Shown here piece by piece: positions 11,076 to 24,695 of a stretch of DNA of 64,000 bases. The notes beneath the pieces are model-generated. The model searched no databases. It worked only from the letters and a program-made list of their open reading frames with translations, and was not told where the DNA came from. Within the stretch, counting starts at the first letter, position 1; every line of letters begins with the position of its first letter. Made by a program: the position numbers and the translations under genes. The stretch is from Alteromonas pelagimontana. GTDB lineage: Bacteria; Pseudomonadota; Gammaproteobacteria; Enterobacterales; Alteromonadaceae. Where the stretch lies: positions 4,030,001 through 4,094,000 of the forward strand of contig NZ_CP052766.1 of the NCBI RefSeq assembly GCF_002499975.2, given 5' to 3'.

Positions 11076-11261
11076 TACACTTGTGTATGGCATCCAATAT
11101 CATACTGAAGATAACGACGTCGAAACGGTTTCTTCCTCTATCTTTCTGATATAACGTTTTTTTTATCCCTCATTCCTTACCGATACCGTGGAGCTATCAA
11201 GGTATTAAGCCTCAGGGCAACCGCTAGACTGAGCGAAAAACCATCAGCAGTGAAAATAGGT

Positions 11262-11395
11262 AAAGCTTTCTTATCCGAAACGCCGTAAAATCATCCCTGA
11301 TGGCTCTTCTGGAGCATCCAAGACTCCAGAAATTAAAGGCCCCAGAAGTTCTGGCTAAGAAAACTTCACTTTTTGGGTAAAAATATTCGCGATCT
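11262..11395 (+). repeat. Dispersed small-ORF repeat, copy A (degenerate)
   Basis: Matches the intact copy at 24567-24695 over about 55 bases with few differences (TTTCTTATCCGAAACGCC, then TCATCCCTGATGGCTCTTCT and GGAGCATCC). One frame reads FLIRNAVKSSLMALLEHPRL, then APEVLAKKTSLFG and a stop. The intact copy reads FLIRNAGKSFLMVLLERPRS, then AKKTSPLF. Copy A has lost its start: ATG is replaced by ATA and the frame shifts before FLIRNA. The rest of 11076-11561 shows nothing recognisable. Confidence 0.6.
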
Positions 11396-11561
11396 CGCCC
11401 TAGATTAGGCATCATCACTTAGTATTTACTGCGTTATGTTCAGCAGATTATTGATGTTTGGAGAATCTGAATAAAGTTCAGACGTTTAGTAGTCCACATC
11501 AAGGTGGATTAGTATTATCCGAACTACATGAGGCTGATATAATAACGCGCTAACGCCTCCT

Positions 11562-12890
11562 TCAGAATATCTTCGGGCAATGTGTAAATGACGTATAAGC
11601 TTCCTGAATTTCTCGTTTATCCTTTTCACTTATCCGCTCAAGTTCGATTAGTTCAACGGTAGCTTTAGCTTGTTCATTAATCTTCTCTTGAAACTCTTTA
11701 TCAAAGTGCTCCTTTAATTTACTAAGACAGTGCAATATATGCAGGGCAACATCGACGTGCGCTTTGCCCGCCTGACGAATTTGGTCGAAACTGGTGTCGA
11801 TAACACTGTGTAAATTAAAGGTGCGTCGCTTTAACCAGATATTCGAGGAGGTGTTCACTACGCAAGAAGCAGGAAAAACGCGATGTGACATTAGAATACA
11901 CGCTGAAGTTAATTTATCTAAACAAGTAATTGCGGTAAAGGGGTCGTTTATTCCTGGTGAAAGCGCGCGTAATGCAATTTCTACCAACTGGCTGACTACG
12001 AATTCCGGATCCTGTATGGGCGTGCGCTGCCGGCCGATAACAATAAACTTCCTCAACTCTTCTATAGTCTCTTCCTGCAATTGACAAGTTGAATGAATAA
12101 TTAGAATGGTCGCGTCTGGCATAACATGATCGCCGCTTCTCGCCTTCACCTCAATCCCTGTAATCCTGTCCGATTCAAGGTTTAACATCTTCGAGTAATT
12201 GATACTCTGCGCATAGCCAATGCGTTTCGCTTTAACGGATGTCTGATAAAAACCTACGCTTACCAACGCCTCGGAAATCGGTAGCTCATTCGCTTCGCCT
12301 TCGGGACGAGGCAGTAATGTGTCAAGATTCGCTTCTAAGTTTCTGAAGCACCGATAGATAACTTCATCTGCCTGAATAAACCGTGCAATGTGATGAATAA
12401 AGTAAACTATGGTGAAAGTATCAATAATAGCAAGCAGCATGGCCAGTGCAGAAAGGAGCGAAAGCGCATCTCTGTTTTCTGTAATACTACTTAAATGGTG
12501 CAGTGCAATAATACAAAAAAGAAAGGTCGATACCATTGTGCCCAGCACGACTTGTGTGCCTTTGTCTATCATAAATGTGCGTAGGAGACGAGGCCCAAAC
12601 TGCGCTGAAGCCATCGTTAGCGCTACGATTGTCATAGAAAACACGATACTTGTAGCAGTTATAATAGCTGTAGCGATGGTAGAAAGTAATTGCTGGGCAC
12701 CGGCTTGAGTCACCAGCGGGATTAAACTTAACATTCCCTCGGGCATCGAGGCGCGGCGTGCCACCGTTAGACACACCAGGCAAAACATCGAAGTGACTAT
12801 CATCATGCAAACGGGAATAAACCAATAGCTGGTACTGATCCCTTCCACCCATGTTCGAATTCGAGTGGTTAACACAGAATAGCTCACCAC
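11562..12890 (-). CDS. DUF2254 family membrane protein
   Basis: 442 residues. The N-terminal third has four hydrophobic segments (about 20-42, 68-92, 112-132, 140-162). Within it lies the family core SIVFSMTIVALTMASAQFGPRLLR followed by a second transmembrane pair; this is broken here for length but is continuous in the protein. The remaining 280 residues are soluble and contain RTPIQDPEF and LSPGINDPFTA, the conserved DUF2254 motif. The biochemical role of the family is not known; the architecture suggests a membrane channel or sensor with a cytoplasmic domain. Transcribed alone on the minus strand. Confidence 0.85.
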   Translation of the reverse strand: MVSYSVLTTRIRTWVEGISTSYWFIPVCMMIVTSMFCLVCLTVARRASMPEGMLSLIPLVTQAGAQQLLSTIATAIITATSIVFSMTIVALTMASAQFGPRLLRTFMIDKGTQVVLGTMVSTFLFCIIALHHLSSITENRDALSLLSALAMLLAIIDTFTIVYFIHHIARFIQADEVIYRCFRNLEANLDTLLPRPEGEANELPISEALVSVGFYQTSVKAKRIGYAQSINYSKMLNLESDRITGIEVKARSGDHVMPDATILIIHSTCQLQEETIEELRKFIVIGRQRTPIQDPEFVVSQLVEIALRALSPGINDPFTAITCLDKLTSACILMSHRVFPASCVVNTSSNIWLKRRTFNLHSVIDTSFDQIRQAGKAHVDVALHILHCLSKLKEHFDKEFQEKINEQAKATVELIELERISEKDKREIQEAYTSFTHCPKIF

Positions 12891-12965
12891 AGTCTAATAT
12901 CCTTTTACTGACCTTATATTGAGGGTAATCCCACGGCCGTTACCATCATCAGCTGCGAAAGGTAC

Positions 12966-13025
12966 GGTTTCGTATCTGAAACGCCATAGAATGTTGCGCG
13001 ATAGATCTGTTGGCGCACTCCTACT
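12966..13025 (+). repeat. Dispersed small-ORF repeat, copy C (strongly degenerate)
   Basis: TTTCGTATCTGAAACGCC and the following GATCTGTTGGCGCACTCC align with copy A over about 54 bases. In the homologous frame it reads F-R-I-stop-N-A and later DLLAHS, against FLIRNA and ALLEHP in copy A. No open frame remains. The rest of 12891-13353 holds only a small palindrome (ATGTAGT/ACTACAT, 13092-13111) and no gene. Confidence 0.45.
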
Positions 13026-13353
13026 TCGGAACTGCGGTTAATGAGCTATCAATTATCGGTTAGTTACGGTTAGCGATTTGGCTGACATCCTATGTAGTTA
13101 CAACACTACATGTGAGCCATTCGGCAAAAGACGAATTAAACACTGTGATATCGCCTATTTGCCTCATCTGCACCGCGTATAAACACTAATTTTGCTTACC
13201 CCGAACTTGCTATAGAAGAAATAATAAATACCCTCTTAGATAACTAAACTACATAACCCTATCTTTTGGCGCTAGTCCGCAGTACAGGACATAACATCGG
13301 GTAGTTGAGGACGAAAAATTAAAAGCCCCGGTTTTTCGACGCGGCATTTCCTC

Positions 13354-13797
13354 CTAATGCTCATGGAGTTCAGCCTGCATCTCGTCCCTGTACTCTTTTG
13401 CCAGGTGATTTTTCTGCTGTTTACTGAGAACTTTATCGGCAATCGGAAAGAAATCTTGTTCTTCGTCGTTAAAATGATGTTCGACGAGTTCCTGAAGCGC
13501 TTTCAAATGGTGTAACCATCCAGAAGAGCTCATATCTGTCTCATCCAGTTTTTCGAGTAGCTCGTCAATTTCATGGTGTTCCGCCATTCCGTGACGGGAA
13601 AGTTCTATAGCTTCGTCCGTATCTATTAAAGGCGAATAAAAAAATCGTTCTTCTGCAATTGCGTGACTTTCCAGTTGGTCCTTTAACTCCTGATAATACT
13701 CTTGTCTCGCAGGCGTATCTCCGCTGGTTTCCGCAAGTATCTTCAGTAATGAGCGTTGCTTTTCGTGATCTTGACGTATGGCTTCAAAAATATTCAT
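13354..13797 (-). CDS. Hemerythrin HHE-domain protein
   Basis: 147 residues, a four-helix bundle with the di-iron ligand pattern: HEKQ in helix 1 (His11), ESHAIAEERFF in helix 2, MAEHHEIDELL in helix 3, and VEHHFNDEEQDFFP in helix 4. This is the cation-binding hemerythrin-like family (YtfE/DnrN-like without its N-terminal domain), linked to O2 or NO binding and iron-centre repair. It stands alone on the minus strand. With the decayed globin 2.5 kb away it may be part of a gas or nitrosative stress set; that is inference. Confidence 0.9.
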   Translation of the reverse strand: MNIFEAIRQDHEKQRSLLKILAETSGDTPARQEYYQELKDQLESHAIAEERFFYSPLIDTDEAIELSRHGMAEHHEIDELLEKLDETDMSSSGWLHHLKALQELVEHHFNDEEQDFFPIADKVLSKQQKNHLAKEYRDEMQAELHEH

Positions 13798-13984
13798 AGT
13801 AGTACTCCCAGTTTACTATGTCTTTCCCTGCGAATATCGTTCCATTAAGTGAGGTGATTAACTCATTGAAAGTTAAAGTCTTTTCTCGCTGCGAGTGCGG
13901 CAGTTGCTCTTCGAATAATAACATTCCGTAGTTTTTACACTTATTTTGCATTTCTTGCGGTTACAAACTGAGGGGAAATCGCTA

Positions 13985-14080
13985 AGAGCCTGCGAAAGAC
14001 ATTGAGACTCCTTAGGCAACTTGCTGGAGCGAGAACGCCCCAGCAGAGATATCATGATTGACCTATCCATGCTCATTCGA
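13985..14080 (-). repeat. Dispersed small-ORF repeat, copy D (minus strand)
   Basis: On the minus strand an open frame from ATG 14076 reads MSMDRSIMISLLGRSRSSKL and PKESQCLS. The DNA aligns with the intact copy at 24567 over about 57 bases (GGTCAATCATGATATCTCTG, then CTGGGGCGTTCTCGCTCCAG and CAAGTT), roughly three in four bases equal. Its protein lines up with KSFLMVLLERPRSTSSAKKTS. The frame stays open to 13873 (67 codons), but its tail does not resemble copy B. It lies just downstream of gdhA. Confidence 0.5.
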
Positions 14081-14088
14081 TTACCCGG

Positions 14089-15429
14089 TTAGACTCCTTG
14101 CGCCACCATGGCATCGGCCAAACGTCGAAAAGCAGCAATATTAGCGCCTTTTGCATAATTAACGCGCCCATCTGCAGTGCCAGCTTCCACGCATTGCTGA
14201 TGAATGTTCAGCATAATGTCCTGAAGCGCATCATCAATTTTCTTGTAAGTAGCTCGTTTGAATGTGGCGTTTTGAGACATTTCGAGCCCAGAAATGGCGA
14301 CGCCGCCAGCGTTAGATGCTTTTCCAGGAACAAATGGAATGCCTTTTTCTTCAATGAGATCCAGGGCTTCATTGGTGCACGGCATGTTGGCGCCTTCAAG
14401 AATGTATTTACAACCATTAGACAGTAAAGCCGCCGCTGCATCTTTATCTAATTCATTTTGCGTAGCACAGGGCAGGGCAATGTCCATTGGTTGTTGCCAC
14501 GGCGTGGCATCTTTATGCCAATCTCCTCCATGATGTTCACACAGGTCAATCAGGATGTTGTCGCTTTCAGCTTTGTTCTTAATGGCCCACGAGATAGCCG
14601 ATTCACTGAACCCTTCTTCTTTAATAAGGCAATCACGGCTGTTGGAAAGGCTAATAACTTGCCCGCCAACCTGTACTGATTTTAGAGCAGCATGTAAGGC
14701 TACGTTCCCAGCCCCAGAAATGCCTATTCGTTTATTCTTAATCTCATCCTTATGCTGCTTAAGTACGGCTCTTAACATGTAAATGAGGCCGAAACCTGTC
14801 GCTTCCGTACGCACATGACTCCCGCCAAAGGAAATATCCTTTCCGGTCAGGCTGCCACCAAAGCGATTGTGGATCTTCCGATACTCGCCGTATAAAAAGC
14901 CAATTTCCCTGCTACCTACATTAATATCACCAGCTGGCACATCGGTGTGAGGCCCTATATGGCGCTGCAATTCGCCCATGAAAGCCTGACAAAACCGCAT
15001 TACCTCTGTTTCACTACGTCCTTTGGGATTAAAATCTGATCCTCCCTTGGCTCCGCCTATAGGAATTCCGGTAAGAGCATTTTTAAAGGATTGCTCAAAC
15101 GCGAGAAATTTAAGGACAGATTCGTTGACTGACGGATGGAAGCGCAGTCCCCCCTTGTAAGGGCCAATCAGGCCGCTATGTTGTATACGCCAGCCGTTGT
15201 GGATTTCCACTTCGTTGGCGTCGTTGAGCCAGTGAACGCTGAAATGAATAATGCGCTCCGGTTCGCATAGTCTTTTAAATACATTAAGTCGCCGGTAACT
15301 TTCATTGTTGCAAAAAATTGGTATGACATCCTTTGCAATCTCTTTAGTTGCCTGCAGATATTCGGGTTGAGAAGGGTGACGTTCATCTATCCAGGTTTTA
15401 AATTCGTTTAAAGTAGATTCCTCATCCAT
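14089..15429 (-). CDS. gdhA: NADP-type glutamate dehydrogenase
   Basis: 446 residues, the hexameric bacterial GdhA length. Reversible amination of 2-oxoglutarate with ammonia. Substrate-site motifs are present: GPYKGGLRFHPSVN, KNALTGIPIGGAKGG (catalytic lysine), and DVPAGDINVGSREIGFLYG. The Rossmann fingerprint GISGAGNVALHAA follows, and GKASNAGGVAISGLEMSQN is near the C-terminus. AGAGG lies upstream of the ATG. It supplies glutamate, the substrate for the proBA genes 5.5 kb downstream, though they are separately transcribed. Confidence 0.96.
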   Translation of the reverse strand: MDEESTLNEFKTWIDERHPSQPEYLQATKEIAKDVIPIFCNNESYRRLNVFKRLCEPERIIHFSVHWLNDANEVEIHNGWRIQHSGLIGPYKGGLRFHPSVNESVLKFLAFEQSFKNALTGIPIGGAKGGSDFNPKGRSETEVMRFCQAFMGELQRHIGPHTDVPAGDINVGSREIGFLYGEYRKIHNRFGGSLTGKDISFGGSHVRTEATGFGLIYMLRAVLKQHKDEIKNKRIGISGAGNVALHAALKSVQVGGQVISLSNSRDCLIKEEGFSESAISWAIKNKAESDNILIDLCEHHGGDWHKDATPWQQPMDIALPCATQNELDKDAAAALLSNGCKYILEGANMPCTNEALDLIEEKGIPFVPGKASNAGGVAISGLEMSQNATFKRATYKKIDDALQDIMLNIHQQCVEAGTADGRVNYAKGANIAAFRRLADAMVAQGV

Positions 15430-15573
15430 ATTTAGCCTCTTTTTACTTAAGGAATAATGTCGGTACCCAGAAACCGAAGATCTTGATCAATATATTTATC
15501 ACCGTTAAGGAGAGCCGCCGACAGCGGGTAAAAAATACGTTTCTGATAAGGCAATTTATCCGTAACAGCAGAG

Positions 15574-17196
15574 CTATTCTGGTTTCGAAGCCATTACCCG
15601 TAGATTATTGGAATGAATTTGAATATGAAGTTCCTCTGCCTGTTTGATTTCGCCATCTAATGCGTAGTGTTCCATACCAGAAAACTTAACAATTACCTGC
15701 TTTGCCTGGCGATAGCGGATTCTCTCTGATTCCTTCTTGCTTTCGCCACTTAAAAAAACGAGTTCCGCTAATGACAGAAACTGCTTATCGGAGCTTTCCT
15801 GCGGTTCCAGCCAGGTTATATCTAACTTACCGTCAGTTGCATCAGGAACATCACCACCCTGAGCGAGCGCTGTAGTCACCGGAGCGGCGTTTGCAATAAC
15901 AAGGCTAGGCGTCGTAAGTTTAACGCTTTCCTCATTATCAAATCGAATTTCAAAAGTACCGGTATCATTTTTTGATATCGCATCCCAGAGTCCGCGAAGA
16001 TATGCCAACTGCCCGCCAGCATCTTTTTGAGTGCGATCAGCAGAAGATATCATTTGCTGTTCAAAACCCACTGCAGCCACAAGCAGCATCAATTCGCCGT
16101 TACATAAGGCGGTATCCATTTCTATGACTTTTCCCTCGATTATTGCATCGCAGGCTGAACCGATTGGTACTATTTTGCTGGCATAACCATGAAGAACATG
16201 GCTAAGTGTATTTGCCGTTCCCAACGGAATGAGGCCCAATATTGCATTGGTATCAACACATGCCGCAGCGACTTCCGTAATGGTGCCATCACCTCCGCAC
16301 GCTACAACGACCTCGGCTCCTGCCTTTATTGCTTTACGGGCTAGATGAGTGCCATCAAGAGATTCTGTAGTCTCGTGTACAGTTACCCGATAGTGGGGAT
16401 TTAGCTGTGCAAGTATATCGTCTTTTTCTTCCAGCCATTTTCCCCCGCCAGCCACCGGGTTAGCTATTAATGCCAGGGAACGGGTAAATTTAAGTCTGCC
16501 GCCTTGTTTAATTTTAGATAGCGACCGCAGCTGGCGCTTATTCAACCGTGCTGTGGCGCGAATGGATTGAATTTTGTTAAGAGCATCAAGCACAGAAAGC
16601 GTGTTATCTCGGGCAAGCAGGTAAGCGGCCATGGTGAGGACTGATCTGCCTCTTCCTAGCGCACAATGCACGACCACCTTTTTCCCATCTCGAATCTGCT
16701 GGTCAATCCAGTTCAATGCGGTATTGAGCTGTTCACCAGTTGGACTAGTGTGATCGAGTACCGGAATATTTAGATATGCACAATCCCATTGATAGGCGGT
16801 CCAGTCCAGGCCGTCGAATTCAGCTGTGACATCAAGTATGGCGTTAACCCCATATTCATGGAGAGTTTCCACATCTTTGCCGAAGAGGCGGCAGGCGAGA
16901 AAAAGATTTTCATCTATTTGCTGTATAGCCGGGACTTTGTCGTTTCTTCTGGCCCACGAATTATATGCGTCTGTTCCCAATAAAAAAGGAATAAATAACC
17001 AACGCACGTATATGGGTATAGATCCGTCCTCACGTTTACGAAACATCGAAGGGTACTTAAGTAAGTATGCGGTGCTTACTGCTGCTAAAGAAAAGCAAAT
17101 CCATAAAAATAAAATCTGTACTGGCCAAAAAGGGATAAACCAAGCTAATAACGCTGCAGCAATTGCACCTAGCACGTAGTACTTCACCATTTTCAA
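15574..17196 (-). CDS. Membrane-anchored dual-specificity phosphatase fused to diacylglycerol/lipid kinase domain
   Basis: 540 residues. Two or three N-terminal membrane segments (about 5-22, 25-47, 63-75). A dual-specificity phosphatase domain (about 88-225) carries the P-loop HCALGRGRS with nucleophile Cys178 and Arg184 and a preceding DVTAEFDG loop. A YegS/DAGK-like kinase domain (about 238-540) carries NPVAGGGK, the ATP site GGDGT at residues 301-305, and IPLGTANTLSHVL. The family phosphorylates diacylglycerol, phosphatidylglycerol or sphingoid lipids. The fusion implies linked phosphorylation and dephosphorylation of a lipid or phosphoinositide-like molecule, but the substrate is unknown. 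Confidence 0.85.
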   Translation of the reverse strand: MKMVKYYVLGAIAAALLAWFIPFWPVQILFLWICFSLAAVSTAYLLKYPSMFRKREDGSIPIYVRWLFIPFLLGTDAYNSWARRNDKVPAIQQIDENLFLACRLFGKDVETLHEYGVNAILDVTAEFDGLDWTAYQWDCAYLNIPVLDHTSPTGEQLNTALNWIDQQIRDGKKVVVHCALGRGRSVLTMAAYLLARDNTLSVLDALNKIQSIRATARLNKRQLRSLSKIKQGGRLKFTRSLALIANPVAGGGKWLEEKDDILAQLNPHYRVTVHETTESLDGTHLARKAIKAGAEVVVACGGDGTITEVAAACVDTNAILGLIPLGTANTLSHVLHGYASKIVPIGSACDAIIEGKVIEMDTALCNGELMLLVAAVGFEQQMISSADRTQKDAGGQLAYLRGLWDAISKNDTGTFEIRFDNEESVKLTTPSLVIANAAPVTTALAQGGDVPDATDGKLDITWLEPQESSDKQFLSLAELVFLSGESKKESERIRYRQAKQVIVKFSGMEHYALDGEIKQAEELHIQIHSNNLRVMASKPE

Positions 17197-17309
17197 GCTG
17201 AATTCTCCTTGAAGCTTATTCCTTTCCCGACCGATTATGGAACTTCAGACATATTGCCCATACTAAGAGGGAATTATTATGTTATAAACAGTTAAAACAT
17301 CCCGTCATA

Positions 17310-17924
17310 ATGCAGAATGTCTGCCATGTTGAACACAACCGGCGGAAAAATCGGAATTTTTTATGGTTTCCAGCAATTTGGATAATAGCTGTCATTTTTC
17401 CGTTTCAGTTGATGTGGATAATTGTTCTGCTGCTAGAGAGCTTCTTCATCTTCTCTAAAGAACGTAACACCGATTTTCACTGTGCAGTTGCAATTGGATT
17501 ATTAGGTACTGTTAGTGACAGCCTTGGCTGTCGCCATCGGATTGTTTATTTTTCCTGATCATCCATCAGCTCCACTTGCTCCGGTATGATTGGTTTTTAT
17601 ATGGGCGGGATTTGGTGTAACAGTGCGCTACAGTTTGCATTATTTACAGGGTCGCTGGTTTCTCGCTGCTATATTGGGGGCATTAGCTGGGCCCTTAATT
17701 ATTGGGCGGGGCTTCGCCTGGAGGCTGTGACTTTTGATTTAAGCCTGGTGCAATCGTTGGCTGTGCTGGCGATAATATGGATTGGTATTTTGCCTCTTAC
17801 GCTTTTAATTGTAAAAAAGGTAGAACAGCCCGAAATATATAATGGCGGAGCTTGCGATAAATATTTGGCTACTGGTATGGCTCCTGTGGAAAATTATTCA
17901 AGTTTTCATCTTTCGTTGTTCTAA
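17310..17924 (+). pseudogene. Decayed DUF2878 family membrane protein gene
   Basis: Three consecutive frames make one membrane protein. Frame 1 (from 17310) gives FLWFPAIWIIAVIFPFQLMW, FFIFSKERNTDF and GLLGTVSDSL. From about 17524 the match shifts to LAVAIGLFIFPDHPSAPLAPV, an in-frame TGA at 17587, then FIWAGFGVTVRYSLHYLQGR and FLAAILGALAGPL. From about 17690 it shifts again to NYWAGLRLEAVTFDLS and AVLAIIWIGILPLTLLIVKK. The order FxFPDHP, LHYLQG, GALAGPL, YWAGLRLEAV is that of DUF2878 inner-membrane proteins. Two frameshifts and one stop make it non-functional unless they are sequencing errors. Confidence 0.75.
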
Positions 17925-17978
17925 GATGGCTGGAGGTTGACATAATGACCCGAAAGGCTGCTACTTGCGGAAATTGCA

Positions 17979-18000
17979 AAGCGCTCAAATCAGAGCGCTT
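17979..18000 (-). terminator. Possible terminator of the 18015-18569 gene
   Basis: AAGCGCTC and GAGCGCTT pair around a six-base loop just past the stop of the minus-strand gene; a short, imperfect T run follows in that direction. Confidence 0.5.
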
Positions 18001-18014
18001 CAACTTTCTACAGC

Positions 18015-18569
18015 TTACTGAGCAGATTCCACTACTTTTCGACTGCGCTGGGAAAGCACATCAACAACTGCTTTAATGGACTGATGCTTCTTAAGGTTAA
18101 CGATGACTGCGTAATGCTTTCTGCGAATGGCGTGTCTTACCGTATCAATAATTTCTGTTCTGTCGGGGCGAAGACCCATCAAACCCGCGACGAAAAGACC
18201 GATGAATATGCCTGGGCTAATAAGGGCAATAAATGTAAACATTGGATTATTCTGCGTGAGCTCAGGACCAAATTGAACGAGTAAAAAGGCAATGGTTAGT
18301 CCGACCGCCAATCCTACCGCTCCCAATATCAAATGGGAATTCCACATCATTCTACCAATACTTTCACTATCCCCTTCTAATTTTTCGCTAAAGTGACTAT
18401 CAGTTGGATCGACAATAGTGATTTGATCGCGTCCAACTCCGGTATCGTGCTCCACGTCAGTCACAGACGCACGGGCTTCATCTGCTGTTTCAAATACTGC
18501 AGCAACCTGAATGTGTTGAGGGCTCAAAAATGCTGCCCGAATATTTTCATGATTAGCTGGACTGTTCAT
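18015..18569 (-). CDS. Stress-type membrane protein, two transmembrane segments, function unknown
   Basis: 184 residues. An N-terminal alpha/beta region (QVAAVFETADEARASVTDVE, ITIVDPTD) resembles the general stress protein 17M-like domain. Two hydrophobic helices follow (about 79-98 and 108-130, with the glycine-rich ISPGIFIGLFVAGLMGL). A basic C-terminal region ends in HAIRRKHYAVIVNLKK, whose hydrophobic strand resembles the end of the same domain. I recognise no enzyme motif. The domain resemblance is tentative. Confidence 0.7.
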   Translation of the reverse strand: MNSPANHENIRAAFLSPQHIQVAAVFETADEARASVTDVEHDTGVGRDQITIVDPTDSHFSEKLEGDSESIGRMMWNSHLILGAVGLAVGLTIAFLLVQFGPELTQNNPMFTFIALISPGIFIGLFVAGLMGLRPDRTEIIDTVRHAIRRKHYAVIVNLKKHQSIKAVVDVLSQRSRKVVESAQ

Positions 18570-19054
18570 ACTTCCTCCACACTGTGACTAAACATCAATC
18601 CATTTTTTTGCCAAATCCCGTAACTCTACTGGAATACCTGGCTGGAGCATTACGCTCGAATTCCTTCAGGATTAGGAAAGTAGCCTTACGTTCCTTTTCC
18701 ATTCTCTAAAATGATGATACAAGATTTGTACCGACGGCTATAAGTAGTTGAAAGGTAAAGGACTGTTCAGTCACAAATGCTTGGAACACTTGAAAATCTT
18801 GCTGAAACAGGAACTTTTTGCGGGAACAAATGAAAATTTTTCTGATTATTCAAGATTCCGCTTTAGCTAACTGAGCAGGATTCACCTGCCTGCAAAAGAA
18901 TTTTCGGGTACTTACCTGATACTTGGTTAGTTGGTCTTAAGATTGCACTACCAACTGCCAGAGAACAATGCGGGCACCTGGTCGAGCCCTGAAATTTCGC
19001 CTAAAGGGGTGCAAAATGTTGACGCATTGAATATGAATCATCGAGGTAGCAGTA
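18570..19054. other. Non-coding stretch between the stress-type gene and topoisomerase IB
   Basis: No frame with a recognisable product. 18604-18665 has a very faint likeness to the small-ORF repeat (GGCTGGAGCATTACGCTC), not enough to call. The final 20 bases hold the GAGGT ribosome site of the next gene. Confidence 0.4.
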
Positions 19055-20053
19055 ATGGAAAGTGCAATGTTAGATATTCGGCGTAGACGTCGTGGAAAAG
19101 GGTTTGAGTTTTTTTACTCATCCGGGCGGAAGGTACAAAGCCAAAGAGTGCTCCAGCGAATTCAAAAGTTGGTTATCCCTCCTAATTGGTGTGACGTACG
19201 TATTAATCAACAAGCTACTGCTAACCTGCAAGTTACCGGCATAGATGCTAAGGGGCGAAAGCAATACATCTATCATCCTAATTGGCACAAGGCTCAACAA
19301 AGCGCAAAATTTGCCCGGCTAAGTGAATTTGGCGCGGCCCTGCCGGCGTTTAGAAAGTTTTGCTGGTCTCATGTAGATGATCTTCATTGGACCCGCGATC
19401 GCACTCTTGCCCTTGTTTGCCTTATCCTCGATCACACAGGTCTACGCGCGGGAAATAAACAGTATACCGTTAGTAACAACACCTACGGCCTTACTACGTT
19501 AAGACGTAAACATATTCTTCAAGATGATAACACCGTTAAACTTTCCTTCATTGGAAAGCACAACAAGCCGCGAGAGGTCCAGATTGAAGATCCAAAACTG
19601 GCAGACCTTGTTGCTGAAAGTGCTGAAGAGCGTGGTTATGCACTGTTTCGGTATGAGGATAGCCAAGGAAAATGGCATGATGTGGACAGTCACGATGTTA
19701 ACGCCTTTATCCACGAAAATATGGGAGACGGATTTTCCTGCAAAGATTTTCGCACCTGGGGAGCGAGTCGTTTTGCATTAATGAGTTTGCCCCAGGTCGA
19801 ACGCGCAGTCCTGGAAAATCCTCGCCGTGGCTGGTCTACCACATTGGTTAAGCACGTCGCGTCAATGTTGGGAAATACGCCAGCAGTTTGTCGCCAATAT
19901 TACCTTCACCCGAAATTATTTCAGGTTGTTGATACCGCCTCTAAGCGAGAACTGACGATGGAAGAAATCAAAAAAATTATTCCGGAAGATCAGTTGAACG
20001 ATGAAGTAATCGTCGCGACAGAGAAACTTCTCAATGGAATAATAGCTGCTTGA
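19055..20053 (+). CDS. DNA topoisomerase IB (poxvirus-like bacterial type)
   Basis: 332 residues. The catalytic set can be placed from motif context: Arg131 in TGLRAGNKQY, Lys168 in FIGKHNKPRE, Arg233 in DFRTWGAS, His267 in LVKHVAS, and the nucleophile Tyr283 in VCRQYYLHP. These correspond to Arg130, Lys167, Arg223, His265 and Tyr274 of the vaccinia enzyme. It relaxes supercoils through a 3'-phosphotyrosyl intermediate. Bacterial members are scattered and accessory, often acquired horizontally. ATG at 19055 follows GAGGTAGCAGTA; MLDIRR five residues in is an alternative start. Confidence 0.93.
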   Translation: MESAMLDIRRRRRGKGFEFFYSSGRKVQSQRVLQRIQKLVIPPNWCDVRINQQATANLQVTGIDAKGRKQYIYHPNWHKAQQSAKFARLSEFGAALPAFRKFCWSHVDDLHWTRDRTLALVCLILDHTGLRAGNKQYTVSNNTYGLTTLRRKHILQDDNTVKLSFIGKHNKPREVQIEDPKLADLVAESAEERGYALFRYEDSQGKWHDVDSHDVNAFIHENMGDGFSCKDFRTWGASRFALMSLPQVERAVLENPRRGWSTTLVKHVASMLGNTPAVCRQYYLHPKLFQVVDTASKRELTMEEIKKIIPEDQLNDEVIVATEKLLNGIIAA

Positions 20054-20878
20054 GACAAACTCTCCCCATAAATTAACCGAACCCGTAAATTAAATGAGTA
20101 AATCATGTTTTGTTGAGGTATTTTATTCAAAGTTAATTTATAAAGGATATTGAATTAAACCATAATTATAATCTATAACAATGACTTATATATTTTATTG
20201 AGAGACATTGTAGACTTTTGTTAATCGTGGAAGTACTTACCTACGAAACCGACAATAACCTGATTTTATCCTCTACAGCTTGCAAAGCAGTGCTCAAACT
20301 TGATATAGTTAGAGCTCAAACTAATTGGCACATCCATCTAGTGACGCATGGCCGAAAATGATTAGGCGGCAATGTGAGAGACTTTCGTCCGTTTATTTAC
20401 CAAATTTCAAAAGGTTGAATAGATTTGACTACTCTTAGAAATAGAAAAGATTGTTATTGAGCGGCGCGGCTTATTCTGAGGTGGGGTTACATTAAGGTGG
20501 CGGTTAGTTTAGCTACGGCGATGAGTGCAGAAGTGTCGTTAGTCAACGAAAAATTACGAAGTGCTGAGTGTCTTCGGGGTTGGCGGGTAATAAGTAAATA
20601 TCGCTTTATTGGCTAACGCGCTCTTGAATACTTAATTGTTGGTAGCATAACAATTAGACATCTACACTATGTCTATTGATTTTGGGTAGTGCTGGGTTAA
20701 CGAAGGATTAGTGATTTACTCTCGTTTTTCGTAAATGGAACGAATTTAGTCCTGCTTTTGCTGTGCGTACCGTGGAAGGTAGGAGCACTTTTTAGGCTTA
20801 GTTTTCACGCAGGTGATGCGCTTAGTTGTCTTCAGTAAAGTAAGAATTCGCAGAATAAATGGTTTGAGGTGATTAAAT
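20054..20878. other. Long AT-rich intergenic region upstream of proB
   Basis: 825 bases without a convincing gene. It includes a 33-base piece of the MITE-like element (20444-20476). A short open stretch from about 20499 reads VAVSLATAMSAEVSLVNEKL and stops after about 35 codons; it may be the start of another lost gene, but I cannot name it. GAGGTG before 20879 is the proB ribosome site. Confidence 0.4.
20444..20476 (-). repeat. Fragment of MITE-like terminus
   Basis: GATTGTTATTGAGCGGCGCG followed by GCTTATT matches, on the opposite strand, the left end of the element at 24231-24463 (24245-24270) with one or two differences. No second terminus is found nearby, so this is a broken copy or an independently mobile end. 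It faces the complete element across proBA-mscS. Confidence 0.6.
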
Positions 20879-21988
20879 ATGAGTCGTTCAAATTGGAAAC
20901 GTATCGTAATTAAGGTTGGGAGTGCATTAATTTCTCCGAATAAAAAGGGGTGCAGCAGCCACTATTTGTTGAGTATTGCGCAATTTATTGTGAAGTGTAG
21001 GGCTGCTGGTACCCAGGTGGTGCTGGTTTCTTCCGGTTCCGTTGCGGCAGGATCTCAGTTGTTTCCTGAGCAGGAAAAAACAGATATCGCGGTTAAAAAG
21101 GCAATGGCGGCAGCCGGACAGACAGAAATGATGTCAACATGGGATCGGTTGTTCGATTTCCCTTCTGCGCAAATTTTGTTGACCCACGGCGATTTGCGGG
21201 ACAGGGAGCGGTATGTCAGTATTCGCGAGACCATATTTTGTCTGCTGGACAACGGCGTTTTACCTATCGTAAATGAGAACGATACGGTAACGACTGATAA
21301 GCTTAAAGTTGGAGATAACGATAATCTGTCAGCAATGGTGGCAGCGGCTGCTGATGCAGATGCGCTGATAATCTGTTCGGATATCGATGGGTTGTACAAT
21401 AAAAATCCTCATGAACATGATGATGCAAAATTATTGTCGTGGGTGGAACATATTGATGAGAGTATCTATGCCATGGCTGGTGGCGCTGTGAAAGGCGGTG
21501 TAGGTACCGGCGGAATGCGAACGAAAATCGAGGCGGCCGAAAAAGCGGTTTCTCATGGCATAGATACATTCATCATTAACGGTTTTACCGAATTGTCATT
21601 CAATATGTTGCTTGAAGGCAAGAATCCGGGCACCCATTTTCAGGCGCACGAGACCCCTATGCAGGAGAATATTCACTGGATGCGGCACACCTCTAATGCG
21701 CAGGGTGAGGTTATCGTGGAAAGCAATTTCGCCGCGTCTTTAGAAAGTGACACAGATCAGTTAACGAGTAGTGAAATAATTGAAGTGAAAGGTGAGTTTT
21801 CCGTCGGCGATACGATTTTAGTGCGAAAAGATGATGGTACCAAGCTGGTAAAAGCGAAATCCAATTACAGCAGTTGTCTTTTAAACTTTATCGCCAAGCA
21901 AGATAACGAAGATTTTGCCACTGAGTTTGAACAAAAAACCGGTCCGATTATTTCAAATCAAAACATCGCAAATTTGGAGAAAGAATGA
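20879..21988 (+). CDS. proB: Glutamate 5-kinase
   Basis: First step of proline synthesis from glutamate. 369 residues, the two-domain form: amino acid kinase domain (about 8-260) with KVGSALIS, LVSSGSVAAG, NENDTV, DNDNLSAMVA, GGMRTKIEAA, and a C-terminal PUA domain (about 280-360). The DNA ends in ATGA overlapping the start of proA, so the two are translationally coupled. It has its own long upstream region, as expected for a regulated osmoprotectant route, but no known regulatory site is recognisable. Confidence 0.96.
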   Translation: MSRSNWKRIVIKVGSALISPNKKGCSSHYLLSIAQFIVKCRAAGTQVVLVSSGSVAAGSQLFPEQEKTDIAVKKAMAAAGQTEMMSTWDRLFDFPSAQILLTHGDLRDRERYVSIRETIFCLLDNGVLPIVNENDTVTTDKLKVGDNDNLSAMVAAAADADALIICSDIDGLYNKNPHEHDDAKLLSWVEHIDESIYAMAGGAVKGGVGTGGMRTKIEAAEKAVSHGIDTFIINGFTELSFNMLLEGKNPGTHFQAHETPMQENIHWMRHTSNAQGEVIVESNFAASLESDTDQLTSSEIIEVKGEFSVGDTILVRKDDGTKLVKAKSNYSSCLLNFIAKQDNEDFATEFEQKTGPIISNQNIANLEKE

Positions 21989-23232
21989 GCTTAATTTCAG
22001 AGTTAGCGAAAGAGACAAAAAAAGCTGCACAAACCTTAGCTGTCCTGGATGAAGCTAAAAAAAATGCAGTGTTAAAAGATATGGCAGCGGCGCTTCGGGC
22101 AAACAAAGAAAAAATAAAGCAAGTTAATGAAAAAGAAGTCGCTCGAGCGAAAGAAAACCAATTAGATTCTGCTATGGTAGATCGGTTGATTCTCAATGAC
22201 GAACGCATAGAAAGTATGGCTGAAGGCATTGAAGTCATTGTCAGCCTTGATGATCCGGTGGGGCAGGAACGGGTAATAGGAACCCGCCCCAATGGTATCG
22301 AAATTAAAAAAATGCGTATTCCATTGGGGGTGGTGTGTATGATTTATGAAGCCCGCCCTAATGTGACCGCCGATGCAGGAGCACTATGCTTCAAATCGGG
22401 TAACGGAGTAATTTTACGTGGGGGCAAAGAAGCGCTCGATTCCAGCCTCTGTATCGCTGAGATTCTACAAGATGTTCTGGTAAAGCATGATCTGCCGAAA
22501 GCGTTGATTAACGTTGTACCTGATGCAGATCGCCAGCTTATGCAGGAGTTGATGGAGCAGCGAGATTATATTGACGTAATTATTCCACGTGGCGGCGAAG
22601 GGCTGATTAACTACGTGACAGATAACGCAAAAGTGCCTGTCATCCAGCATTTCAAAGGCGTATGTCATCTTTACGTTGATAAAGCCGCTGACTTGGACAA
22701 AGCGCTCAATTTGCTACTTAACGGAAAAACGCAAAGAACGGGTGTATGTAATGCACTGGAAGGATTAATTGTCCACCAGGCGGTAGCTGGAGATTTCCTT
22801 CCGCGAGTTGCGAAATCCTTAGCCGAACATGACGTAAAAATTCACGTCAATGACAAAGGTGCTGCTTATTTTGAGGGCGCAGATGTTATTAGTGAAGAAG
22901 GTTACGGTGAAGAGTATCTTGGCTTGGAAATCGCTATTCGTGTGGTGGAGGATATTGACGCCGCGTTCGAACATATTTTTCGGTTTGGCAGTCACCACAC
23001 AGAGGTTATCTGTACTGAAGATAAAGAAGCAGCGGATCGTTTTCAGCGCACAGTCGATGCGTCAGTAGTGATGGTTAATGCTTCCTCACGTTTCTCAGAT
23101 GGCAGTCAGTTAGGACTGGGAGCTGAGATAGGGATTGCAACCACCAAACTACACGCTTACGGCCCAATGGGACTGGAATCTTTAACGTCGGAAAAGTATC
23201 TGGTAAATGGTACTGGACAGGTAAGAGATTAA
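21985..23232 (+). CDS. proA: Gamma-glutamyl phosphate reductase
   Basis: Reduces gamma-glutamyl phosphate from ProB to glutamate semialdehyde with NADPH. 415 residues, full length. Motifs: MIYEARPNVTADAGALCFKSGN, VIPRGGEGLI, the catalytic cysteine in RTGVCNALEGL, HHTEVICTED, and SRFSDGSQLGLGAEIGI with the C-terminal GPMGLESLTSEKY. ATGA overlap with proB. Confidence 0.97.
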   Translation: MSLISELAKETKKAAQTLAVLDEAKKNAVLKDMAAALRANKEKIKQVNEKEVARAKENQLDSAMVDRLILNDERIESMAEGIEVIVSLDDPVGQERVIGTRPNGIEIKKMRIPLGVVCMIYEARPNVTADAGALCFKSGNGVILRGGKEALDSSLCIAEILQDVLVKHDLPKALINVVPDADRQLMQELMEQRDYIDVIIPRGGEGLINYVTDNAKVPVIQHFKGVCHLYVDKAADLDKALNLLLNGKTQRTGVCNALEGLIVHQAVAGDFLPRVAKSLAEHDVKIHVNDKGAAYFEGADVISEEGYGEEYLGLEIAIRVVEDIDAAFEHIFRFGSHHTEVICTEDKEAADRFQRTVDASVVMVNASSRFSDGSQLGLGAEIGIATTKLHAYGPMGLESLTSEKYLVNGTGQVRD

Positions 23233-23276
23233 CCGTATGGGATTGTCTCTTGGTTAGGCATTGGTCATAATGAAAG

Positions 23277-23308
23277 CACCGGGTTGGATAGAAACCCGGT
23301 GTTTTTTT
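23277..23308 (+). terminator. Rho-independent terminator after proBA
   Basis: CACCGGGTT and AACCCGGTG pair around a seven-base loop, followed by seven T. It lies 45 bases after proA. Confidence 0.93.
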
Positions 23309-23340
23309 ATGTGGAGCGAAAAATTGAAGCCAGGGGCTAA

Positions 23341-24234
23341 GTGTTGAATATTGATGTAGATAATTGGTGGTTACAAATTGTTTATCTGACAGACACCTAC
23401 AAGCTGTTTTCCTCCGCTATCATTGTAGTGCTGTTTTTGGCGGCAAAACGTCTTATCCTTAAGCTCATTAAAATGCGCAGTAAAAGAAAAGGTGAGGACA
23501 GACGCCATACCATAAATATTCTTGAACAGCTGGGAAACGCCTCTCTTCTTATTCTTCTCATGCTGCTCTGGGGCAATGAAATCCAGAGTTTGGCTATTTC
23601 CATCGCTGCTTTTATGGTAGCAATCGTACTTGCCACCCGGGAATTCATTCAGTGCTTCATGGGTTTCATCTACTATCTGGGAGCCAAGCCTTTTAGAGTC
23701 GGCGACTGGATTCAGATGAATAATATAGTGGGCGAAGTGGTTGAAATGGACTGGGCAAAAACTGCCTTGCTCGAAGTTGATCACGAATCATTTAGCTACA
23801 CTGGAAAACATGTGTATGTTCCTAATAGTCAACTGGTCACCCAGACCGTTAAGAATCTCAACTTTTTACGAAGATATACGCTTCACTCATTTTCTATTAT
23901 TAATGAACCCTCAGTAAATCCCTATTCTTTATTGCCCACCTTCATCGCAAAAGCAAAAGGCCATTGTGAATATTTTCGGGACGTTGCTGAACGCTATAAA
24001 GGGCTAATTGAGCGGCATATGGAAGTGGAATTTATTCAAATCGATCCTGATATTGCCGTGGAAACAAATCAGTTTGCAAAGCTGAAAGTCACGGTATCGC
24101 TTTTTTGTCCTACTGCAGAGGCACATGCATTACAGCAGAAAATCAGTGCCGACTGGATGGATCTTTGGCATTCGGCGTTACAAGGGCAAACGCTTGAAAA
24201 GCAGGCTTCCTCGCAGACGGTAGATAATAATTAA
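23341..24234 (+). CDS. MscS-family mechanosensitive channel
   Basis: 297 residues from GTG. Three hydrophobic helices (about 21-42, 63-80, 85-105), the third being the pore-lining segment running into REFIQCFMGFIYYLGAKPFR. The beta domain motif FRVGDWIQMNNIVGEVVEMD and VPNSQLV follow, as in MscS/MscK. It would release solutes on hypo-osmotic shock, which suits its position after proBA. The stop codon TAA is part of the TTAA that begins a MITE-like element, so the last residues may have been changed by its insertion. Confidence 0.88.
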   Translation: MLNIDVDNWWLQIVYLTDTYKLFSSAIIVVLFLAAKRLILKLIKMRSKRKGEDRRHTINILEQLGNASLLILLMLLWGNEIQSLAISIAAFMVAIVLATREFIQCFMGFIYYLGAKPFRVGDWIQMNNIVGEVVEMDWAKTALLEVDHESFSYTGKHVYVPNSQLVTQTVKNLNFLRRYTLHSFSIINEPSVNPYSLLPTFIAKAKGHCEYFRDVAERYKGLIERHMEVEFIQIDPDIAVETNQFAKLKVTVSLFCPTAEAHALQQKISADWMDLWHSALQGQTLEKQASSQTVDNN

Positions 24235-24463
24235 CCCAACTCGAGATAAGCCGCGCCGCTCAATAACGATCTTTTTGCGCCTGGCATCGTTGCGCTTTTT
24301 AATCATAGCTGGCTATGACGTACGAAATCTTGCTTTGCTATGCGCAAAAATCTCGTCCTCGAGCCAATATTAACTTAAGAACAATCGACTTCTATATATA
24401 AGCTGCTGATTTAAAAGTATATTTAAGGTCTGTACGATACTTCTTATCTCGGGTTGGGCTTAA
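24231..24463. mobile_element. MITE-like non-autonomous element with ~20 bp terminal inverted repeats
   Basis: 233 bases. Left end TTAACCCAACTCGAGATAAG, right end (read on the other strand) TTAAGCCCAACCCGAGATAAG minus one base, i.e. the two ends pair over about 20 positions with one mismatch and one indel. Both ends carry TTAA, which may be a target duplication. Internal inverted repeats GATCTTTTTGCGC / GCGCAAAAATC and CATAGCTGGCTATG add further secondary structure. No coding frame. The left TTAA supplies the stop of the mscS gene. Confidence 0.75.
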
Positions 24464-24566
24464 GCTGCCCCGACATATTTGTCGAATAAACCTGATGATA
24501 AATTTGTCATTGAGGTAAAAATCAGAACAAGAGCATGAATGAATAAACATTCTGCAACCTTAAAAA

Positions 24567-24695
24567 ATGAGTAAATTTCTTATTCGAAACGCGGGAAAGT
24601 CATTCCTGATGGTTCTGCTGGAGCGTCCCCGTTCCACAAGTTCGGCTAAAAAAACGTCACCATTGTTTGAAAGTGGCCATCTCTCCCTGCGTTAA
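24567..24695 (+). CDS. Small ORF of 42 residues, intact member (copy B) of a dispersed repeat family
   Basis: ATG at 24567 opens MSKFLIRNAGKSFLMVLLER, continues PRSTSSAKKTSPLFESG and ends HLSLR. Degenerate relatives occur at 11262, 12966 and 13985 (minus). Copy A keeps FLIRNA.KS.LM.LLE.PR and AKKTS.LF at the protein level. The N-terminus is a short basic-hydrophobic segment. No clear ribosome site: AACCTTAAAA precedes the ATG. The stop overlaps by two bases the stop of the convergent HNH gene. It may be a peptide gene or a non-coding repeat that happens to be open. Function unknown. Confidence 0.45.
   Translation: MSKFLIRNAGKSFLMVLLERPRSTSSAKKTSPLFESGHLSLR

What the first reader, a model, noticed from the sequence alone, without database searches (positions are those of the whole stretch)
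11262..24695. A dispersed repeat family that encodes a small protein (FLIRNAxKSxLMxLLExPR), in four copies limited to the accessory region
Seen: copies at 11262-11395, 12966-13025, 13985-14080 (minus) and 24567-24695. Copy B is a clean 42-residue frame. Copies A and B differ at many positions yet keep FLIRNA.KS.LM.LLE.PR and AKKTS.LF, with silent differences (CTTATT/CTTATC, CTGCTGGAG/CTTCTGGAG), which suggests past selection for coding. Copies A and C are broken. I see no copy in the conserved blocks. Inference: a mobile or frequently duplicated small-peptide gene, or a structured repeat that is open by chance.
Basis: partly seen in the sequence, partly recalled or inferred. Interest (0 to 1): 0.75.

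Follow-up and report, generated by a model that had tools for sequence, protein, structure and literature searches.

The report
Jumping hairpin repeat, not a gene
The repeated 'small protein' is a chance reading of a short, hairpin-forming piece of mobile DNA that seems to borrow another element's jumping machinery, and its hairpin core belongs to a widespread bacterial repeat whose two strands appear to be listed already as two separate RNA families.

Summary
The four copies are real (one weakly), but they are remnants of a 173-bp mobile element, not of a gene. I aligned 53 copies over the genome, so they are not confined to an accessory region. Ends are CAGGGC-type inverted repeats; flanks match at 8 or more of 10 bases in 27 of 53 copies, against 23 of 2756 mismatched flank pairs. 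The ends match a resident ISAs1-family insertion sequence with a 10-bp duplication (up to 19 of 20 bases), the interior does not: a MITE, presumably moved in trans. Coding is not supported: both consensus sequences have an in-frame TAA just before FLIRNA, and 4 of 52 copies combine a start with an open frame. The conserved letters spell a fold: two hairpins with GGA loops on the opposite strand, inside a long stem. The same head with other, complementary arms occurs across Gammaproteobacteria (exact pattern in 32 of 369 genomes, own included; covariation). Rfam's TwoAYGGAY (CsrB clan) and Ysr224 hit its two strands. ISAs1-driven mobility is well supported; CsrA binding by the head is plausible, untested, and weakly supported by strand evidence.

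The parts
11213..11401 (+). Repeat copy 1, subfamily A, nearly full length, with about 17 extra bases in hairpin 2
   Evidence: Alignment score 264.9, null maximum 58; 190 bp, 90% of consensus positions identical
11269..11366 (-). Two-hairpin head of copy 1, on the strand with GGA loops
   Evidence: R1 53.4 bits, E 1e-13
12922..13082 (+). Repeat copy 2, decayed, nearly full length
   Evidence: Score 119.7, null maximum 58; missed by R1 at E<=10
13971..14098 (-). Repeat copy 3, strongly decayed, partial; weakest of the four
   Evidence: Score 74.4 with consensus B, null maximum 56.9; with A 60.5, null maximum 62.9
24523..24689 (+). Repeat copy 4, subfamily B, full length, diverged (77% of consensus positions identical)
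   Evidence: Score 201.7, null maximum 56
24577..24658 (-). Decaying two-hairpin head of copy 4
   Evidence: R1 36.2 bits with many broken pairs; the whole copy folds no better than shuffles, z 0.43
24567..24695 (+).
   Evidence: no homologous protein

Best explanation
The family is a MITE of about 173 bp in a genome that is probably an Alteromonas. SHOWN: its two ends resemble those of ISAs1-family insertion sequences, about half of the copies are flanked by near-perfect 10-bp duplications, and its inside is unrelated to the resident insertion sequences. INFERRED: ISAs1 transposase binds the ends and moves the element in trans. Subfamily B ends fit best the resident 1249-bp insertion sequence at 2852899-2854147; subfamily A ends fit best one found in genus-mates. 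The FLIRNA peptide is what the head spells when the other strand is translated. INFERRED, between 1 in 4 and 1 in 3: the head acts when transcribed, as a pair of CsrA/RsmA-type binding hairpins, so that the MITE spreads such sites; otherwise it acts at the DNA level or is a passenger.
For: Flanks match at 8 or more of 10 bases in 27 of 53 copies against 23 of 2756 control pairs, the same small offsets allowed in both. Insertion sequence 2852899-2854147 has a perfect 10-bp duplication; over 20 bases its right end matches the B left end at 19 and the A left end at 16, its left end the A right end at 17 and the B right end at 14; in all 8 comparisons the MITE interior scores below the best of 60 shuffles against the two resident types of insertion sequence. 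An ISAs1 element of G010 shares its first 19 right-end bases with the A left end (ends printed, compared by eye). G046, another family of the order, holds a 174-bp relative with a perfect 10-bp duplication. Head covariation on 76 sequences: 88.8% of cells paired against 35-41% when slid, 669 double-changed cells against 199 in shuffles. Hairpin-2 loop contains TCC in 176 of 187 copies although the search pattern left that hairpin free. An intact copy folds well on the GGA strand, z -3.56. One csrA gene is present. TwoAYGGAY and CsrB share an Rfam clan, and genus-mate L057 exceeds the TwoAYGGAY cut-off.
Against: 26 of 53 copies lack a good duplication, and the second copy of the insertion sequence (L031) has none. 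Among the five ISAs1 matches of this genome I saw no ends of subfamily A type. Nine distinct copies of this genome searched against Rfam hit neither TwoAYGGAY nor Ysr224, so that link runs through model R1, one of whose 76 sequences is from this genome. Two of five covariation measures did not exceed shuffles (pairs with double change 24 against 22.9; pair types 87 against 84.1). A2 was chosen by eye (76 of 135), so its paired percentage is too high. Strand evidence is limited: G.U plus G.A exceed A.C plus C.U on the GGA strand in the outer stem (90 to 44; 32 sequences against 8), but not in hairpin 2 (29 to 52 with all its pairs) nor over all pairs together (119 to 96, sign p 0.15). Orientation to genes is unbiased here (25 of 52) and elsewhere (66 of 123). 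No transcription data.
Confidence: 0.88

Rival explanations
1. A mobile or duplicated small-protein gene (FLIRNA peptide) under selection for its amino acids.
For: 35 of 52 copies stay open for 26 or more codons from FLI; third codon positions change slightly more (91, 85, 109) and synonymous changes are 95 against 84.4 expected, the highest of the six frames; copy 24567 is a clean frame with ATG.
Against: In-frame TAA immediately before the conserved stretch in both consensus sequences; 4 of 52 copies with start plus open frame; synonymous excess not significant (26 of 300 simulations as high); no homologue in one word-based search; the conserved letters are explained by pairing and loops.
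Confidence: 0.04
2. The head is a functional RNA: dispersed pairs of CsrA/RsmA-binding hairpins that titrate CsrA or put neighbouring transcripts under CsrA control.
For: Both loops carry GGA, with a TACARGGATGTA-like hairpin 1 in part of the copies (CsrA consensus recalled, not from a call); TwoAYGGAY shares an Rfam clan with CsrB; earlier proposal that TwoAYGGAY RNAs bind CsrA (PMC4333381, passage); outer-stem mismatches favour the GGA strand; the head changes somewhat less than the rest of the element (0.66 against 0.87 singletons per site, permutation p 0.016; seen in subfamily A rather than B).
Against: Hairpin 2 does not show the strand asymmetry and over all pairs it is not significant; no strand bias relative to genes; in G035 the spacer between acnD and prpF holds two heads in opposite orientation; the expression reported for a relative is under the name Ysr224, whose Rfam model is the other strand (PMC12112432, passage).
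Confidence: 0.27
3. The head is a DNA-level element like REP/BIME repeats: a hairpin-forming mobile or regulatory palindrome with no protein-binding RNA.
For: High copy numbers (160 exact pattern hits in G308), inverted pairs about 130-300 bp apart in at least nine loci and runs of copies, mostly intergenic (123 of 156 by crude ORF calls), 33 convergent against 18 divergent gene pairs, no orientation bias.
Against: Outer-stem mismatches are asymmetric between strands, which a symmetric duplex role would not give; no REP-type transposase was looked for.
Confidence: 0.36
4. The repeat is purely selfish and the head is a passenger without role for the host.
For: 52 of 53 copies lie between genes by crude ORF calls and are decayed to different degrees; copy 24523-24689 no longer folds better than shuffles.
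Against: The head is kept by covariation over many families, mostly without ISAs1 ends being apparent (ends not tested systematically).
Confidence: 0.3

Closest known systems
MITEs of bacteria (class of non-autonomous elements)
   Same: Short, non-coding, many copies, ends of an autonomous insertion sequence, target duplications
   Different: The inside is not a deleted form of the resident insertion sequences but a conserved structured head shared with repeats elsewhere
ISAs1-family insertion sequences (NF033564)
   Same: CAGGGC ends and a 10-bp duplication in the resident copy
   Different: No transposase in the repeat; about 173 bp instead of 1249
Rfam RF01731 TwoAYGGAY RNA (clan CL00106 with CsrB)
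   Same: Two hairpins with GGA loops on the same strand; genus-mate L057 scores 44.7 bits, cut-off 43
   Different: Nine distinct copies of this genome do not match the Rfam model; here the head sits in ISAs1 ends
Rfam RF02770 Ysr224 (Yersinia sRNA 224)
   Same: Hits the other strand of the same DNA at L042 and L040; best L055, 38.3 bits
   Different: All matches seen are below the cut-off of 70; none in this genome's copies
REP/BIME and GTAG- or CGTC-tagged palindromes (PMC3733652, seen only in a search listing)
   Same: Intergenic, palindromic, often in inverted pairs
   Different: Larger, double-hairpin head with GGA/TCC loops and variable long arms

Membership tests
MITE | Terminal inverted repeats at both ends | tested here: met
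   CAGGGC-type ends in both consensus sequences and in many copies; decayed in others
MITE | Target site duplication | tested here: met
   27 of 53 at 8 or more of 10, control 23 of 2756
MITE | No transposase, many copies | tested here: met
   173 bp, 53 aligned copies
ISAs1-mobilised element | Ends match an ISAs1-family insertion sequence with an intact transposase frame in the same genome | tested here: met
   B 19 of 20 and 14 of 20; A 16 of 20 and 17 of 20; NF033564 matches of 404 and 400 bits without stops
ISAs1-mobilised element | Transposition in trans by that transposase | not testable with these tools
   Needs an assay
TwoAYGGAY (RF01731) | Score over the curated cut-off, copies of this genome | tested here: not met
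   No match for nine distinct copies in 11 loci (2 at E<=5; 9 at E<=10)
TwoAYGGAY (RF01731) | Score over the cut-off, heads of other genomes | tested here: inconclusive
   1 of 27 loci over the cut-off (L057, 44.7 against 43); L042 37.5 and L040 35.7 below; the other 24 not listed at E<=5 or E<=1
CsrA-binding RNA | Two or more hairpins with GGA in the loop | tested here: met
   Hairpin-2 loop with TCC on the complementary strand in 176 of 187; hairpin 1 was fixed by the search pattern and so is not informative
CsrA-binding RNA | Binds CsrA | not testable with these tools
   csrA is present; no binding data
REP/BIME | Associated REP-type transposase | not tested
   Not searched
Small-protein gene | Start codon and open frame in most copies | tested here: not met
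   4 of 52
Small-protein gene | Excess of synonymous change | tested here: inconclusive
   95 of 285 against 84.4 expected, z 1.34

The most novel reading that the evidence does not exclude
Insertion-sequence ends have captured a CsrA-type two-hairpin RNA head, so that transposition seeds a genome with dozens of ready-made CsrA-binding sites: a mobile way to rewire or titrate a global post-transcriptional regulator. The class-wide head would be the parent repeat, already half-known as two separate Rfam RNAs that are in truth the two strands of one dispersed element.
Probability: 0.18. Interest if true: 0.8.

Novelty: new variant of a known kind. Interest (0 to 1): 0.5.

Why it matters
It turns a supposed small-protein family into a clear case of a MITE with a structured cargo and points to the insertion sequences whose ends it uses. 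It also suggests that two separately catalogued RNA families lie on opposite strands of one widespread gammaproteobacterial repeat, so that annotated 'Ysr224 sRNAs' may often be repeat copies. And it gives a testable link between mobile DNA and CsrA regulation.

Tried and rejected
Rfam at curated cut-offs on the window: only one tRNA. Exact 21-mer from the core in genome contigs: no match; that collection may leave out this genome and its nearest kin. Protein homologues of the 42-residue peptide: no candidate shared three 5-residue words, a search of limited sensitivity. Placing the MITE copies in TwoAYGGAY directly: no match. Literature: nine searches; in the rows shown (titles and starts of abstracts; several lists were far longer than what I saw) nothing described this repeat or an ISAs1-derived MITE of Alteromonas. 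Subscription papers are not held, so this is weak evidence. Of papers I saw passages only: PMC2864571, PMC4333381, PMC4383904, PMC9029176, PMC12112432. The typical ISAs1 ends and duplication length and the CsrA SELEX consensus are recalled, not from a call. The mismatch count on MITE copies (85 to 33) was not used because one opposition already in the consensus supplies many of its cells. My first strand test (112 to 56) had left out two columns of hairpin 2; the check shows that the asymmetry stands in the outer stem only, and for this I lowered the CsrA odds from 0.30 to 0.27 and the novel case from 0.20 to 0.18, and raised the DNA-level rival from 0.35 to 0.36. A3 was not used for covariation because it was fitted to the model; its raw counts are therefore also biased. 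An empty-site comparison was not done. The G046 and G051 repeats were inspected at a few loci only; G051 has no ISAs1 match.
Full report
Observation. Aligned to 173-bp consensus sequences they span 11213-11401, 12922-13082, 13971-14098 (minus) and 24523-24689; three score far above 200 random stretches of the window, the one at 13971 clearly only with one of two consensus sequences. The clean 42-codon frame at 24567-24695 exists. The copies are not limited to an accessory region: a peptide-level search of the 4,314,189-bp genome gives 48 matches at E<=10, a DNA search at least 40 places (only 40 of 104 candidates were scored; the other 13 rows are short palindromic cross-matches), and the covariance model R1 77 matches at E<=1 (150 of 723 candidates scored).

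It is a MITE. I fitted 54 of the 77 places to the consensus and kept 53. Subfamilies A and B have 21 copies each with score 200 or more. Flanking 10-mers match at 8 or more positions in 27 of 53 copies, against 23 of 2756 pairs of flanks from different copies. The genome has five matches to the ISAs1 transposase family, one of them broken. One insertion sequence, 2852899-2854147, 1249 bp, is flanked by a perfect 10-bp duplication; a second copy, identical at 1241 of 1249 bases, has none. Over 20 bases its right end matches the left end of B at 19 and of A at 16, and its left end the right end of A at 17 and of B at 14; the MITE interior shows no similarity to it. An ISAs1 element of genus-mate G010 (57% identical transposase, seven matches) has a right end beginning with the same 19 bases as the left end of A, and 10-bp duplications in the two copies I looked at (compared by eye). 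Transposase homologues at E<=1e-60 occur in 14 of 118 genomes, own included. G046, of another family, holds a 174-bp element of the same build with a perfect 10-bp duplication (L044), and an insertion-sequence end like the right end of A beside a transposase remnant (L271). By crude ORF of 53 copies lie between genes, without orientation bias (25 of 52).

It is not a protein gene. In both consensus sequences TAA stands just before the conserved stretch (one lysine, or alanine and lysine, in between), with no start codon. From FLI on, 35 of 52 copies stay open for 26 or more codons, but only 4 also have an in-frame start upstream. Changes fall on codon positions 91, 85 and 109 times; 95 of 285 are synonymous against 84.4 expected (z 1.34; 26 of 300 simulations as high), the highest value of six frames but not significant. 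Copy 24567 differs from its consensus by 7 synonymous and 8 non-synonymous codons of 30. A word-based protein search found no candidate.

What is conserved is a fold. Relatives match mainly the middle of the repeat. The exact pattern GCCGTNNANNCATCCNTGNNGGCT occurs in 26 of 60 genomes near this one and in 32 of 369 sampled over the class, own included in both; the backward control gave none in either. A scan of named genomes stopped at its limit with 119 stretches, among them Alteromonas, Rheinheimera, Stenotrophomonas, Xanthomonas, Marinobacter, Microbulbifer, Oceanisphaera, Shewanella and Yersinia similis; one metagenome assembly is labelled Desulfobulbaceae. Copies have a constant head between long arms that differ but complement each other. 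On 76 sequences, chosen by eye from 135 non-redundant ones, 88.8% of cells pair against 35-41% with slid partners, 669 cells are changed on both sides against 199 in shuffles, and the covariation score is 0.692 against 0.174; two further measures do not exceed shuffles (pairs with a double change 24 against 22.9, pair types 87 against 84.1). All 12 pairs of the outer stem and 10 of 11 of hairpin 2 change on both sides. The pattern fixes hairpin 1 but not hairpin 2; the loop of hairpin 2 contains TCC in 176 of 187 copies where a hairpin was found, of 196 hits. On the other strand both loops are GGA. An intact copy folds well as RNA on that strand (z -3.56); copy 24523-24689 no longer does (z 0.43).

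Which strand. In the outer stem, G.U and G.A oppositions outnumber A.C and C.U on the GGA strand by 90 to 44 (32 sequences against 8, 36 ties), mostly through G.A. In hairpin 2 this is not seen: 29 to 52 with all its pairs, 22 to 12 only if two columns are left out. Over all pairs it is 119 to 96, not significant. So the strand evidence is suggestive at most. Gene orientation gives none: 66 of 123 intergenic heads have the upstream gene on the GGA strand; of 33 heads in crudely called ORFs 23 lie with the GGA strand and 10 against it. In G035 the spacer between acnD and prpF (named by eye) holds two heads in opposite orientation.

Known relatives. TwoAYGGAY (RF01731) matches heads of other genomes on the GGA strand: once above its cut-off (L057, 44.7 against 43), twice below (L042, L040), out of 27 loci tried. 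Ysr224 (RF02770) matches the opposite strand, at L042 and L040 of the very same DNA, always below its cut-off. TwoAYGGAY is in clan CL00106 with CsrB, seen with the E. coli csrB locus as control. A paper proposed that TwoAYGGAY RNAs bind CsrA (PMC4333381, passage); the original table calls it probably RNA and probably not cis-regulatory, in human gut, gamma-Proteobacteria and Clostridiales (PMC2864571, passage). Ysr224 is described as multi-copy and expressed in Yersinia ruckeri (PMC12112432, passage) and among the 20 most prevalent annotated sRNAs (PMC9029176, passages). Nine distinct copies of the present genome match neither model. They join this family through R1, of whose 76 sequences one is from this genome, and through the exact head pattern (9 places).

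Verdict. Mobility is well supported by ends, duplications and resident insertion sequence; movement in trans is inferred. The protein reading fails. A CsrA/RsmA-type RNA role of the head I put at 0.27, a DNA-level, REP-like role at 0.36, no role at 0.30. The host is probably an Alteromonas: its PNPase is 92% identical to that of genus-mate G001, 91% to Alteromonas halophila and 89% to Alteromonas confluentis, against 68-74% for the genomes tried outside the genus; this is inference.

Noticed in passing
L042 1459-1592 and L040 127-279: Rfam families TwoAYGGAY and Ysr224 match opposite strands of the same DNA, both below their cut-offs, so they may describe one repeat.
   Followed up: partly
L047 and L073 (genus-mate G020); L060 (G035): Two heads about 3.95 kb apart flank what looks like methylcitrate synthase (prpC) and acnD in a prp operon (names by eye, no family search run); several genus-mates have pairs at similar spacing, and G035 has two heads in opposite orientation between acnD and prpF.
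   Followed up: partly
L125, L143, L147, L154, L164, L173, L177, L186, L196: Heads occur as inverted pairs some 130-300 bp apart, like BIMEs.
   Followed up: no
L050, L051, L057, L062, L063: Behind the same terminator-like sequence, different genus-mates carry heads with different but mostly complementary arms, as if arms were replaced while staying paired; L051 looks broken.
   Followed up: no
L002 (genome 3306337-3306505) and L224: One MITE copy lies about 0.7 kb from the single csrA gene at 3305469-3305624; may be chance.
   Followed up: no
window 20445-20485 and 24235-24275: Inverted repeat of 41 nt, 88% complementary, 3.7 kb apart, on either side of the proB-proA-like genes (gene names by eye).
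   Followed up: no
genome 1656279-1656356: A head without recognisable MITE ends (33.7 bits; poor full-length fit); may be a stand-alone form.
   Followed up: no
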